Shown here piece by piece: positions 33,945-39,472 of a DNA stretch of 52,185 nt. The stretch is taken from positions 1 through 52,185 of the forward strand of contig JAUIHM010000011.1 of the NCBI GenBank assembly GCA_030432315.1, given 5' to 3'. How positions within the stretch are numbered: position 1 is the stretch's first letter; every line of letters begins with the position of its first letter. The translations under genes and the position numbers were made by a program. Source of the DNA: Alphaproteobacteria bacterium (GTDB lineage: Bacteria > Pseudomonadota > Alphaproteobacteria > Rhodobacterales > Rhodobacteraceae). The notes below the pieces were generated by a model. That model worked only from the letters and a program-made list of their open reading frames with translations, did no database searches and was not told the DNA's origin.

Positions 33945-35417
33945 TCAGGCGCTGCGTTCGACGCTGCTGTTCCAGGAATCGAGTTTGCGGTAGATGGTCG
34001 AGGGTGAAACGCCGAGCACCTTGGCGGCGCGGGGGATCGAGCCGCCGCAATGGGTGATGGTCGCCTCGATGAATTCGCGTTCCACATCGGACAGCGGCAG
34101 GCCGACGAGATCGGCCATGCGTCCGGTGACCGGCACCCGGTCGGCTGAGGCCACCCAGGAAGGACGAAACTGCTGCACCTTGCCGTCGGACCGGTTGCGG
34201 GCAGCCTCGTCCTCCGAAAACTGCCGCGACGCAGCGAGTTCTGACGGGAGCATCTCCGGCGTCACCAGCGGCCCGTCGTGCAGAACCATGACGTTGCGCA
34301 CGACATTGAGAAGCTGACGCACGTTGCCGGGCCAGGGGTGATTGATGAGGATCTGCGCCACCTCCCTGTCGAAGCCGGTGAAGCCCTTGCCCTCCTCACG
34401 GGCATATTCCACCAGGAACGACTGGGCGATGTCGAGAATGTCCTGGCCCCGTCCCTGCAGCGGCGGCATGTGGATCGGCACGACGTGCAGCCGGTAGTAG
34501 AGATCCTCACGGAACCGTCCGGCGCGCACTTCGTCCAGCGGATTGCGGTTGGTGGCGCAGACGATGCGCACGTCGACCGGGACCGGCCGCGCGGCGCCGA
34601 CCGGCTGAATGGTCGACGTCTGCAGGAACCGCAGCAGCTTGGTCTGCAGACTGAGGTCCATTTCGCAAACCTCGTCGAGGAACAGCGTGCCGCCGTTGGC
34701 CACCGCCGCCGCACCGGGTTTGTCGCTGAGTGCGCCGGTAAAGGCACCTTTCAGATGTCCGAACACCTCGGATTCCAGCAGATCGCGCGGGATCGCCGCA
34801 CAGTTCAGCGGCACGAAGGGTTTGTGCGCCCGGTTTGACAGGGAATGGATCGCCCGGGCGGCAACATCCTTGCCGGTGCCGCTCTCGCCGGTGATGAACA
34901 CCGTTGCCGTGGAGCGGCCGATGGACTTGATCATCCGGTAGATGTCGGTCATCGGCTTCGAATGGCCGATGAAGCCCTCGAACCCGCCACTGTCGGTGTC
35001 GACCTCCAGCGCCGCCGAATCGCTCTGGTGCGGTGCCGACGCCAACGCATTCTGCACGGCATTGACAAGGCGCGCGTCATCGAACGGCTTGACCAGAAAA
35101 TCGAACGCACCGGCACGCATCGCCTGAACCGCGCGGTAGATCGAACCGTTCGCCGTGATGACGATCACCCGAATATCCGGAGCGTTGGCCTGCAGCGTCT
35201 CCAGCAGTTCGATGCCGTCACCGTCGGGAAGCTGCAGATCCAGCAGAACCAGCCGCGGCTTGCAGCGAATAAGGTAGTCCCGCGCATCCGACATCGTGAA
35301 GGTGCGGGTGACCGTATGCCCGGCCCGTTCGAGGGCCTGTCCGTAGAGCATGGACAGCGACTCGGTGTCCTCGACCAGCAGCAGACTGTCCTGGACGTCC
35401 TTTCCCCTACCCGGCAT
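33945..35417 (-). CDS. LuxO-like sigma-54-dependent response regulator
   Basis: 490 residues from the ATG at 35417 (MPGRGKDVQDSLLL), with AAAGGA upstream; the first bases overlap the end of the preceding gene. The receiver has VEDTES at the acidic pocket, the phosphoacceptor D60 in LLDLQLPDGDG and K110 in FLVKPF. The AAA+ domain has Walker A GESGTGKD (177-184), the sigma-54 contact loop GAFTGA (224-229) and ATNRNPLDEV. A Fis-type helix-turn-helix ends the protein (IPRAAKVLGVSPSTIYRKL). From the receiver-AAA+ join through the whole ATPase core it resembles Vibrio LuxO closely as I remember it. It activates sigma-54 promoters when phosphorylated; targets are not visible in the window. Confidence 0.9.
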   Translation of the reverse strand: MPGRGKDVQDSLLLVEDTESLSMLYGQALERAGHTVTRTFTMSDARDYLIRCKPRLVLLDLQLPDGDGIELLETLQANAPDIRVIVITANGSIYRAVQAMRAGAFDFLVKPFDDARLVNAVQNALASAPHQSDSAALEVDTDSGGFEGFIGHSKPMTDIYRMIKSIGRSTATVFITGESGTGKDVAARAIHSLSNRAHKPFVPLNCAAIPRDLLESEVFGHLKGAFTGALSDKPGAAAVANGGTLFLDEVCEMDLSLQTKLLRFLQTSTIQPVGAARPVPVDVRIVCATNRNPLDEVRAGRFREDLYYRLHVVPIHMPPLQGRGQDILDIAQSFLVEYAREEGKGFTGFDREVAQILINHPWPGNVRQLLNVVRNVMVLHDGPLVTPEMLPSELAASRQFSEDEAARNRSDGKVQQFRPSWVASADRVPVTGRMADLVGLPLSDVEREFIEATITHCGGSIPRAAKVLGVSPSTIYRKLDSWNSSVERSA

Positions 35418-36975
35418 TGCGTTTTCCTTTGGCAAATCTCACTGCGGCGTCGATCTCGCGGATGCACTCCCTCACCTTGGGTGTGATGTCGGAGTCGGCC
35501 GGGTTGTGGCTGGCGATGTTGACCTGTCGCGCGATCGTCTGAAGCCTGGCCGCGCCGATCGCACCACCGACGGAAATCAGAATGTGCGACGCACTGCCGA
35601 TCGAAGCAAGATCGAGCGGATCGAGGCCATTCGAAAGGTTCTGGCCGGAGGATTCAAGATCGGTCACGACCTTCTCCAGCAACTCATCCATCATTTCCGG
35701 CCCGATCGCTTCTGCAAGCGCATCATAGACAACCAGATCTATCTCCGCCTCATCACTTCCGGTTTCCGGCTCGGGCGCAGTGGCGGGTTTTGGCGACGCG
35801 GCGGCGTCCTTCCGCAGCCACGGCACGAGCGACACAAGACCGTTGCCGAGAACCTCGATGCTGATGATCGGTTTGGAAATCAGGCCGTTTGCCCCGGCTT
35901 CGGCGATCTTGTCCCTGTGCTCACGCAGGGCATAGGCCGTCAGGGCGACGATGGGAACCGACCGGCGCGCGTCGCTCCTCGCACGAATGCGCCGGATTAC
36001 GTCGAGACCGGACAGCCGCGGCATTTCGATATCAACGATCACCAGATCGAAGGTTCCCGTTTCGAACTTCTCCAGTGCCTCGACCCCGTCGGAACAGATT
36101 TCGCAGGTGATACCGAGCGCACGCAGCATCTGGCTCGCCACCATCTGATTGGTTGGATTGTCTTCCGCCAGCAGCACATGCAGACCGGCGAGGCCATGGG
36201 TGTCTTCAGCGGCCTGCGCCTTGCCGGCAGGAGTTGATGGTACGGCGGTCACTGCCGCCTCGCGCGGCTCGTAGAGATTGCGCTCGACCGGGAAGCGCAC
36301 CGTGATGTCGGCGCCGCCTTCGGGCCTGTTGCGCAGCGCAAAGGTACCGCCGTGGCTTTCGGTCAAGTTTCGGACAATGTGCAGACCGATGCCATGTATC
36401 GCCGTTTCCAGCCCGAGGTCATTGCAGCTCGACTGCATCACCTGATCGGCGACGGCCTGGGGAATGCCGGGGCCGGTATCGGTGACACGGATCTCGACGC
36501 CGCCGGCGTCGTGACAGGTAACGGTCATCCGCACCGTTCCGGACGCGGTATGCTTGATGGCATTCGACAGCAGATTGCCGACGAGGCGGACCATCATGAT
36601 ATGGGTCAGGTCGAGGCCGGCGGGCAGATTGCGGCCGCAGTCAATCTCAAAGCCGATGCCCTTGGCCTGGGCTTCGCCGCGCCAGCGGCGGTCCACATAG
36701 GGAATGAACCGGCTGAAGTCGAGCCGGTCGGTGCGGACATCCTCGCCGCCAAGCCTGATGCTGATCAGCCCCGCCAGCGAATGGCAGGCATTTGCGATCC
36801 GGTCGAACTGTTCGCGCGCCTCGGACGGCAGCGTCTCACGGTCCACCGTCGCCACCCCGCCGATCACGCCCTGAAGTGCGCCACGGATGTCGTGGGCCAG
36901 CATTGCCGCTTCGATTCCTTCAGTCAGATCCTCTCCCGCGCGAAGGTGATCCGGTACGATAGGCGAATTGTACAC
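35407..36975 (-). CDS. Soluble hybrid kinase: HisKA-HATPase-receiver-HPt
   Basis: 522 residues from a GTG at 36975. No membrane segment or sensor domain. Phosphoacceptor-type His28 lies in MLAHDIRGAL. The ATPase domain is intact: N-box NLLSNAIKH (134-142), G1 DTGPGIP (167-172) and G2 GIGLHIV (195-201). A receiver follows with AEDNPTNQ, D315 in IVDIEMPR and K368 in ISKP. A C-terminal HPt-like segment has His463 in SASHILISVGGAIGAARL. It could pass phosphate from its own or a partner's histidine to D315, H463 and then D60 of the LuxO-like regulator, whose gene overlaps its 3' end. This puts the LuxU function inside one multidomain protein. Confidence 0.85.
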   Translation of the reverse strand: MYNSPIVPDHLRAGEDLTEGIEAAMLAHDIRGALQGVIGGVATVDRETLPSEAREQFDRIANACHSLAGLISIRLGGEDVRTDRLDFSRFIPYVDRRWRGEAQAKGIGFEIDCGRNLPAGLDLTHIMMVRLVGNLLSNAIKHTASGTVRMTVTCHDAGGVEIRVTDTGPGIPQAVADQVMQSSCNDLGLETAIHGIGLHIVRNLTESHGGTFALRNRPEGGADITVRFPVERNLYEPREAAVTAVPSTPAGKAQAAEDTHGLAGLHVLLAEDNPTNQMVASQMLRALGITCEICSDGVEALEKFETGTFDLVIVDIEMPRLSGLDVIRRIRARSDARRSVPIVALTAYALREHRDKIAEAGANGLISKPIISIEVLGNGLVSLVPWLRKDAAASPKPATAPEPETGSDEAEIDLVVYDALAEAIGPEMMDELLEKVVTDLESSGQNLSNGLDPLDLASIGSASHILISVGGAIGAARLQTIARQVNIASHNPADSDITPKVRECIREIDAAVRFAKGKRNAG

Positions 36976-38952: not shown

Positions 38953-38956
38953 TTTG

Positions 38957-39472
38957 TCAGAGGGACTCTATTCTGACGACCTGCCAGATCAGACGGGTGT
39001 TGTAGACCGGGTCATGCAGTTCCGAATGATCGGATATCGGGTACATCAGCCAGAGCGGTCCCTTGTCGCGCCGTGACAGAGGCTGTCCGTCGGCCTCAAG
39101 CGCAAGAATGACGTTGTATTTGCGAAAGTCGCTTGTAGGCACGTCGACATAGTAGTCGTTTGCGGCGGTAAAGCGGATGGTTTCCGCATCCCCCAGGGCG
39201 AGGTGTTCGAGGACATCGCGCACCAGAGGCCCGCGATAGGTTACCAACCCGTCCGTAAACTCGTTCTCGGTCGTGATGCTGACCAGCGGCAGGGCCTCCA
39301 GCTGTTCCAGCGTGAATTCAAGGTCGGCACCTCCGTCCGCGCCACGGCTGAGGGTCAGCGCCGCTTCCGCACCGACCGGCCCCGACACCGCGAACAGCGT
39401 ACATATTGTCAGACACCAGGCAACAATCGCCCGCCGAACTACACCTTGGGTTGATCTGTCCACAGAAACCAT
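38957..39472 (-). CDS. Exported SUOX-fold (oxidoreductase molybdopterin-binding domain) small protein
   Basis: 171 residues with AGGTGAGG before the ATG. Residues 1-35 form a signal peptide (AIVAWCLTICTLFAVSGPVGAEA). The mature ~135 residues match the small form of the sulfite-oxidase-type molybdopterin-binding domain: TYRGPLVRDVLEHL, TAANDYYVDVPTSDF, VILALEADGQPLSRRDKGPLWLMYP pattern elements and a C-terminal WQVVRIE. The mature part contains no cysteine, whereas enzymes of this fold bind molybdenum through one. It therefore probably does not bind active cofactor as usual and may be a ligand-binding periplasmic partner of the sensor kinase encoded four bases downstream. It is the first gene of the phosphorelay operon. 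Confidence 0.8.
   Translation of the reverse strand: MVSVDRSTQGVVRRAIVAWCLTICTLFAVSGPVGAEAALTLSRGADGGADLEFTLEQLEALPLVSITTENEFTDGLVTYRGPLVRDVLEHLALGDAETIRFTAANDYYVDVPTSDFRKYNVILALEADGQPLSRRDKGPLWLMYPISDHSELHDPVYNTRLIWQVVRIESL

What the first reader, a model, noticed from the sequence alone, without database searches (positions are those of the whole stretch)
33945..39472. LuxO-like phosphorelay operon with a SUOX-fold periplasmic partner in an alphaproteobacterium
Seen: four genes on one strand encode an exported SUOX-fold protein, a membrane histidine kinase, a soluble HisKA-HATPase-receiver-HPt protein and a LuxO-like REC-AAA+-Fis activator. Known: in Vibrio, LuxP-LuxQ-LuxU-LuxO integrates autoinducer signals and drives sigma-54 dependent small RNAs. 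Inference: this is a parallel system with an unrelated periplasmic input protein and the HPt carried on the middle protein. The signal and output are unknown. I know of no description of this combination, but I could not search.
Basis: partly seen in the sequence, partly recalled or inferred. Interest (0 to 1): 0.82.

Follow-up and report, generated by a model that had tools for sequence, protein, structure and literature searches.

The report
Pterin-sensing relay to a sigma-54 activator
Four neighbouring genes in an alphaproteobacterium encode a relative of known pterin-binding proteins, a membrane receptor that has lost the usual ATP-binding motifs of a kinase, a separate soluble kinase-type protein, and a LuxO-like gene activator; together they likely turn an external pterin signal into sigma-54-driven transcription, which would add a gene-control output to bacterial pterin sensing.

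Summary
The four genes are there as described. The 'SUOX-fold' protein is no unknown input: it is a PruR-type pterin-binding protein (best PDB matches 7KP2, 7KOS; pocket Asn, Tyr and Trp kept; no Mo-ligating Cys), and the next gene has the WX7E motif of known PruR-DTB receptors. The third gene supplies an intact-looking kinase, receiver and HPt. The LuxO-like protein is tied to sigma-54: rpoN is found in 82 of 102 family genomes with it and 43 of 286 without, and among 74 proteins read its sigma-54 loop is intact in 48 of 54 with rpoN but 3 of 20 without. The kinase-LuxO pair is a common core; the PruR-receptor pair is an extra input (14 of 394 genomes), gained or lost at one place. In six rpoN-bearing carriers the LuxO-like protein is the only loop-bearing activator found. 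Pterin binding, phosphotransfer and targets are untested. A new variant of PruR-DTB signalling, likely wired like LuxPQ-LuxU-LuxO.

The parts
38957..39472 (-). PruR-type periplasmic pterin-binding protein (171 aa)
   Evidence: phmmer against PDB: 7kp2 2.1e-21, 7kos 6.9e-20, 7rkb 9.4e-18 (named pterin binding), 7kom 2.4e-16 (Oxidored_molyb); N105-D106-Y107 and W163 align with the pterin-pocket residues; Cys only at 20 and 24
37324..38952 (-). DTB-type membrane receptor, pseudo histidine kinase (542 aa)
   Evidence: HisKA only; the 120 best relatives listed, the window's own included, show HisKA alone
38797..38823 (-). WX7E motif W44-E52 in the predicted periplasmic part
   Evidence: sequence; motif as described in PMC13259868
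38260..38262 (-). H231, phospho-accepting histidine, kept in 29 of 29 aligned receptors
37636..38094 (-). degenerate ATP-binding (CA) domain, residues about 287-439; fold kept in the model, motifs lost
   Evidence: model m935619863617; matches GacS, RetS, DivL; motifs absent
37327..37635 (-). C-terminal domain of uncertain kind (alpha/beta in the model), residues about 440-542
   Evidence: not matched to receiver domains by profile
36976..37323 (-). 348-bp gap between receptor and soluble kinase genes
   Evidence: no sigma-54-like site found
35407..36975 (-). soluble hybrid kinase DHp-CA-REC-HPt (522 aa from GTG; a database copy starts later, 498 aa)
   Evidence: H28, N134, N138, D166, G168, G170, G195, G197, E271, D272, D315, K368, H464 invariant in 12 aligned; model; 498-aa copy P0126
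36892..36894 (-). H28, kinase phospho-accepting histidine
36031..36033 (-). D315, receiver aspartate
35584..35586 (-). H464, HPt histidine
33945..35435 (-). LuxO-like REC-AAA+-Fis sigma-54 activator (TTG start; inner ATG at 35417)
   Evidence: NCBIfam LuxO 561 bits (cut-off 800), next NtrC 404; best PDB hit LuxO 5ep0, 6e-123
35238..35240 (-). D66 (D60 from the ATG), receiver aspartate
34731..34748 (-). GAFTGA sigma-54 contact loop
33978..34094 (-). Fis-type HTH
   Evidence: Pfam HTH_8 1.3e-13
39715..41619 (-). conserved neighbour, propionate-CoA ligase-like (context, not part of the relay)
   Evidence: relative in 12 of 18 carrier loci and 18 of 20 non-carrier loci
29137..33713 (-). downstream neighbours cdd, deoA, deoB, add, upp (context)

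Best explanation
Four co-directional genes encode a PruR-type protein, a WX7E membrane receptor without the usual ATP-site motifs, a soluble kinase-receiver-HPt protein and a LuxO-like activator with the sigma-54 loop, and they likely form one phosphorelay in which a periplasmic pterin, read by the PruR protein, sets how much phosphate reaches the activator. Steps: (1) the PruR protein would bind a reduced pterin in the periplasm and dock on the receptor's WX7E domain (inferred from A. tumefaciens PruR-DcpA). (2) The receptor is predicted not to be an ordinary kinase; it would act on the soluble kinase through its DHp/CA region, as RetS acts on GacS or DivL on CckA: by pairing with it, by changing its autophosphorylation, or by taking its phosphate on H231 (inferred). 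(3) The soluble kinase would autophosphorylate H28 and pass phosphate to D315 and H464 (motifs shown, transfer inferred). (4) H464 would phosphorylate D66 of the LuxO-like protein (inferred from gene order and the LuxU-LuxO precedent). (5) The activator would open sigma-54 promoters (supported by co-occurrence with rpoN and by loss of the loop where rpoN is not found). The soluble kinase and LuxO-like gene are the core; the PruR-receptor pair is an input present in some genomes only. Target genes are unknown.
Against: The 17 receptors may share one origin, so their motif loss need not be 17 independent events. In 3 of 18 loci (L041, L200, L203) the middle protein is only REC-HPt, so no local protein there looks able to start the relay. 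L200, L202 and L203 have no LuxO after the kinase gene; L041 and L203 have no PruR ORF beside the receptor. L042 is a degenerate receptor without the kinase gene beside it. G362 lacks rpoN but keeps GSFTGA; 6 of 54 with rpoN have a changed loop. On the LuxO tree only 3 independent pairs rest on firm branches, too few for significance. No sigma-54 promoter excess (38 sites against 31 in the reversed control, 12 genomes) and none at the window's operon. No pteridine reductase was identified, by an uninformative test. The receptor's C-terminal domain is not shown to be a receiver.
Confidence: 0.55

Rival explanations
1. The receptor is not an allosteric pseudokinase but a phosphotransfer member: the soluble kinase phosphorylates H231 in trans, or H231 works like the ChpT or RcsD step, so that the receptor is an in-line relay station or a phosphate sink.
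For: H231 is invariant in 29 of 29 aligned receptors although 18 of them lack the ATP motifs; a purely allosteric protein such as DivL can do without its His (recalled). RetS is reported to siphon phosphate from the GacS DHp site (PMC12189002, passage).
Against: The soluble protein already has a receiver and an HPt, so another in-line His is not needed.
Confidence: 0.25
2. The PruR-receptor pair and the kinase-LuxO pair are neighbours by synteny only and signal separately; the receptor talks to kinases elsewhere and the kinase-LuxO pair senses a cytoplasmic cue.
For: The kinase-LuxO pair stands without PruR and receptor downstream of the same propionate-CoA ligase-like gene in 18 of 20 non-carrier loci; G083 has PruR with a degenerate receptor apart from its kinase-LuxO pair (L042, L373).
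Against: The ATP motifs are lost in all 17 receptors next to the kinase gene and in only 1 of 18 elsewhere, which ties the receptor's state to having the kinase beside it, though kinship alone could also give this.
Confidence: 0.15
3. An ordinary PruR-DTB two-component system whose receptor is an active though divergent kinase, with a passenger hybrid kinase.
For: The CA fold is kept in the model, and 4 of 17 still match HATPase_c weakly.
Against: No DxGxG, GLGL or N-box in 17 of 17.
Confidence: 0.05

Closest known systems
PruR-DTB systems (DcpA-TorS-BaeS), as told in the review PMC13259868 (abstract, passages, sections 8 and 9 read; the 2024 original is not held)
   Same: PruR-type periplasmic protein directly upstream of a receptor with the WX7E periplasmic motif and a TorS/BaeS-like transmitter
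   Different: here the receptor's ATP site is degenerate, and a soluble hybrid kinase with HPt and a LuxO-like activator follow; the review describes two-gene operons and, for R. pomeroyi, a DTB with PAS, HisKA, HATPase and Rec
Vibrio LuxP-LuxQ-LuxU-LuxO (system recalled; LuxO model and 5ep0 structure)
   Same: periplasmic binding protein, membrane receptor, HPt, LuxO-type sigma-54 activator
   Different: a PruR-type protein in place of LuxP, a pseudokinase receptor, kinase and HPt on a separate soluble protein; LuxO model 561 bits against cut-off 800; no Qrr RNA in the window
RetS-GacS and DivL-CckA pairs (PMC12189002, passages; PMC9430884, outline and abstract)
   Same: a non-canonical or inactive histidine-kinase fold steering a second hybrid kinase
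   Different: here the steering protein carries the periplasmic input and lies in the same gene cluster; a heterodimer is not shown
NtrC of Rhodobacterales, R. capsulatus (PMC10274813, passages)
   Same: bEBPs of this order that lost the GAFTGA loop; R. capsulatus NtrC is reported to act through sigma-70
   Different: the LuxO-like protein in the window keeps the loop

Membership tests
PruR pterin-binding proteins | sequence match to solved PruR proteins | tested here: met
   7kp2 2.1e-21 (query 48-169), 7kos 6.9e-20 (query 43-168)
PruR pterin-binding proteins | no Mo-ligating Cys; Tyr104 and Trp160 equivalents kept | tested here: met
   Cys only at 20 and 24; Y107 and W163 align
PruR pterin-binding proteins | N-terminal export signal | tested here: inconclusive
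   hydrophobic N-terminus seen in the sequence; no predictor run
PruR pterin-binding proteins | binds a pterin | not testable with these tools
   needs protein
PruR-DTB receptors | WX7E motif in the periplasmic part | tested here: met
   W44-E52; kept in 16 of 17 receptors of this gene order, absent in L203
PruR-DTB receptors | sensor-kinase transmitter with HisKA and HATPase | tested here: not met
   HisKA met; ATP-site motifs absent in 17 of 17. The review says DTB proteins can have all or a portion of these domains, so this marks a variant
PruR-DTB receptors | two-gene operon | tested here: not met
   four genes in a row in 11 of 18 loci
LuxO (NCBIfam equivalog NF041946) | score over the curated cut-off 800 | tested here: not met
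   561 bits, the best of the models listed; 12 of 12 relatives match it, with the best E-value of the 5 families listed
LuxO (NCBIfam equivalog NF041946) | REC aspartate, GAFTGA loop, Fis HTH | tested here: met
LuxO (NCBIfam equivalog NF041946) | Qrr small RNA targets | not tested
   Rfam scan of the window finds only a tRNA; genome not scanned
LuxU-type HPt | stand-alone HPt protein | tested here: not met
   HPt is fused to kinase and receiver
RetS/DivL-like steering pseudokinase | DHp-CA fold with degenerate ATP site | tested here: met
   that the site is inactive is inferred
RetS/DivL-like steering pseudokinase | binds and regulates a second kinase | not testable with these tools
   needs proteins

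The most novel reading that the evidence does not exclude
Bacteria run a pterin-gated quorum-like circuit: a PruR protein and a pseudokinase receptor control a LuxO-type relay, and in several lineages sigma-54 is kept for this circuit alone, so that their whole sigma-54 regulon is the pterin response.
Probability: 0.3. Interest if true: 0.82.

Novelty: new variant of a known kind. Interest (0 to 1): 0.62.

Why it matters
Pterin signalling through PruR is described as control of c-di-GMP by DcpA; for the kinase-type receptors the parts of the review that I read name no output. This locus would give one: a LuxO-like sigma-54 activator reached through a receptor that is itself a likely pseudokinase. 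Because in six rpoN-bearing carriers no other loop-bearing activator was found, the sigma-54 regulon of those bacteria may be the output of this pathway, which would make the output measurable with one rpoN or luxO-like mutant. The loss of the sigma-54 loop in LuxO-like proteins where rpoN is not found is a natural series for studying how such activators turn to sigma-70 or to other roles.

Tried and rejected
Sigma-54 promoters: the exact pattern TGGCACN5TTGCW gave 38 sites over 12 genomes against 31 for the reversed control, none in G000; the next genes at the 30 sites fetched were looked at by eye only, and no shared target was recognised. Of 32 intergenic stretches at 11 operons, 4 had a best site that few shuffles reached (upstream of PruR in L036, L037 and L040; between receptor and kinase genes in L051; 0 to 3.5% of 200 shuffles); these were not followed up, and none lies in the window. 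Targets stay unknown.

Receiver assignment of the receptor's C-terminal domain: a profile comparison with the receivers of ordinary DTBs gave probability 0.2; the second structural look mainly covered residues 213-439. Left open.

PruA/pteridine reductase: NF006598 gave 0 of 15 genomes over the cut-off and many generic SDR hits; 13 of 14 control genomes ring too, none over the cut-off. Uninformative.

Gain or loss of the PruR-receptor pair: 35 LuxO rows need 6 changes (11.6 in shuffles), 74 rows need 5 (13.8 in shuffles), root by midpoint only. A note of mine leaned to loss; this is not kept. Another note there calls a neighbour mutS; it is methylmalonyl-CoA mutase.

In the family search for the receptor only 3 candidates per genome were scored, and two weaker relatives of this gene order (G054, G248) fall outside the 14. 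Among the 102 LuxO-like genomes five matches are weak (405-419 bits: G008, G017, G194, G338, G358) and may be other activators; with 79 strong ones rpoN is in 69 of 79 and 56 of the other 309.

Papers: the 2024 PNAS paper on PruR is not held. Listings for pterin + LuxO + sigma-54 (0 papers), PruR + pterin-binding + histidine kinase (1), PruR + DcpA (4), PruR + pterin + periplasmic + DcpA (3), three or more of PruR, pterin, pseudokinase, sigma-54, Rhodobacter (4), LuxO + Roseobacter + sigma-54 (1), three or more of Rhodobacterales, LuxO, HPt, histidine kinase (32, 20 listed) and molybdopterin, periplasmic, LuxO, histidine kinase, Rhodobacter (27, 20 listed) showed no title or abstract start on this four-gene set. 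Seen beyond listings: PMC13259868 (abstract, passages, sections 8 and 9), PMC9430884 (outline, abstract), PMC10274813, PMC3162934, PMC12189002 (passages). A description in papers not held is possible.

Rows dropped: one search read 81 of the 84 sigma-54-domain hits (LuxO rows of G004, G054 and G057 left out, read); its motif test misses GTFTGA, seen by eye in G775. L198 was left out of the receptor alignments because its ORF is broken by a stop. The receptor alignment A2 held 12 of 18 other PruR-linked receptors; one search checked the motifs in all 18. The kinase alignment A6 held 12 of 18. One search read 72 of the 102 LuxO-like family genomes (all 20 without rpoN, 52 of 82 with, chosen by me) plus two MAGs.
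Full report
1. Observation. The four genes are present on the minus strand at 39472-33945, as described. Pfam gives Oxidored_molyb for the first, HisKA for the second, Response_reg, HATPase_c and, under their cut-offs, HisKA and Hpt for the third, and Response_reg, Sigma54_activat, AAA lid and Fis HTH for the fourth. The numbering needs small corrections (H464 for H463; D66 or D60), and a 348-bp gap lies between genes two and three. The window is contig C119 of a 3.37-Mb, 86.6% complete assembly; named relatives of the second gene listed are mostly Amaricoccus.

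2. The input protein is PruR-like. By sequence its only solved relatives at E <= 1 are 7KP2 (2.1e-21), 7KOS (6.9e-20), 7RKB and 7KOM. The review PMC13259868 calls 7KOS A. tumefaciens PruR and 7KP2 V. cholerae PruR, and says that PruR proteins are about 170 aa, lack the Mo-ligating cysteine and use Tyr104 and Trp160 for the pterin. The window protein has 171 aa, no cysteine outside the first 24 residues, and N105, Y107 and W163 at the aligned places. PruR lies next to the receptor in 15 of 18 loci with this gene order.

4. The third protein supplies the kinase. H28, N134, N138, D166, G168, G170, G195, G197, receiver E271, D272, D315, K368 and HPt H464 are invariant in 12 aligned relatives (12 of 18 loci), and the model shows DHp, CA, REC and a helical HPt part (mean pLDDT 77.2). 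Its 120 best listed relatives all show HATPase_c. Among 18 loci, 15 have the DHp part; L041, L200 and L203 have only REC-HPt. Receiver Asp and HPt His are kept in 16 of 16 loci whose contig reaches them.

5. The fourth protein is LuxO-like and tied to sigma-54. LuxO is its best NCBIfam model (561 bits, cut-off 800; NtrC 404) and its best PDB hit (5ep0). It is more widespread than the receptor: 102 of 388 genomes of the family at E <= 1e-120 against 14 of 394 for the receptor at the same E (1 of 385, the window's own, in a draw over the class). rpoN is in 125 of the 388. rpoN is in 82 of 102 genomes with and 43 of 286 without the LuxO-like gene (odds ratio 23, p 6e-33, not corrected for kinship); with the 79 strong LuxO matches alone, 69 of 79 and 56 of 309. 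In 74 LuxO-like proteins read, the loop is intact (GxF[TS]GA) in 48 of 54 with rpoN and 3 of 20 without; two of those three come from 76% complete assemblies, the third is G362 (99%) (completeness). The receiver Asp is kept in 73 of 74 (not G358). On a tree without the loop columns rpoN changes at least 11 and the loop at least 8 times, but only 3 independent pairs rest on firm branches (on average 1.7 go the same way, 0 the other), so the tree-corrected test has no power. PMC3162934 noted a preference for T-to-P changes in this loop and two genomes (one Jannaschia) with a changed loop and no sigma-54 (passages), so the principle is known; its extent in this gene is seen here.

6. One activator for sigma-54. 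Of the 14 carriers whose LuxO-like loop is intact, seven (G000, G093, G146, G169, G206, G362, G774) have no other sigma-54-domain protein with the loop among the hits at E <= 1e-20; six of these have rpoN. The other seven have at least one more. G000 and G146 are incomplete (86.6% and 83%).

7. Context and evolution. In 11 of 18 loci all four genes stand in a row; two more are cut by contig ends, with a kinase piece and LuxO at the start of another contig (L333, L346). The kinase gene or a piece of it lies directly upstream of LuxO in 30 of 30 loci (weak, 75-98 bits, in three). In 20 LuxO loci without PruR and receptor, 18 have the propionate-CoA ligase-like gene upstream of the kinase gene (68-72% identical to the window's) and 15 the malic enzyme; both are found in 12 of 18 carrier loci. 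Cytidine deaminase follows in 9 of 18, and deoA, deoB and add in 7, 8 and 7. So the PruR-receptor pair was added to, or lost from, one place; the trees do not decide which.

8. Mechanism. I infer that PruR with bound pterin acts on the receptor, that the receptor steers the soluble kinase in the manner of RetS or DivL (or takes its phosphate on H231), and that phosphate passes D315, H464 and the LuxO-like Asp to drive sigma-54 promoters. Shown: homologies, motif losses and retentions, gene order, co-occurrence. Not shown: ligand, phosphotransfer, complex, targets. Loci with no local kinase domain (L041, L200, L203), without LuxO (L200, L202, L203) or without PruR (L041, L203; L044 cannot be told, contig end) show that the parts are separable.

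9. Verdict. A real, conserved system; a new variant of PruR-DTB signalling that likely works like LuxPQ-LuxU-LuxO but is a member of neither LuxO (cut-off not met) nor of catalytically normal DTB systems.

Noticed in passing
window 29137-33713 and 39715-47153: The relay sits in a conserved neighbourhood: methylmalonyl-CoA mutase, PanE-like, malic enzyme, propionate-CoA ligase-like upstream; cdd, deoA, deoB, add, upp downstream. In L040 cdd starts 12 bp after LuxO.
   Followed up: partly
L199, genome G362: LuxO-like protein keeps GSFTGA although neither rpoN domain is found in a 99% complete genome.
   Followed up: partly
L038, genome G057: No rpoN found, and none of the six sigma-54-domain proteins keeps the loop, the LuxO-like one by a deletion.
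   Followed up: yes
L042 and L373, genome G083: A PruR with a degenerate receptor lacking the C-terminal domain lies apart from the kinase-LuxO pair.
   Followed up: no
L048, genome G130: The window's close relative has a second PruR with an ordinary receptor that keeps all kinase motifs and a receiver.
   Followed up: no
L203, genome G248: Receptor without WX7E, no PruR beside it, middle protein reduced to REC-HPt, no LuxO, no rpoN found: a decayed or rewired form.
   Followed up: partly
L036, L037, L040 upstream of PruR: A sigma-54-like site better than 97.5% or more of shuffles upstream of PruR in 3 of 11 operons (not in the window): possible self-regulation.
   Followed up: no
window 7783-7854: tRNA gene on the minus strand (Rfam).
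   Followed up: no
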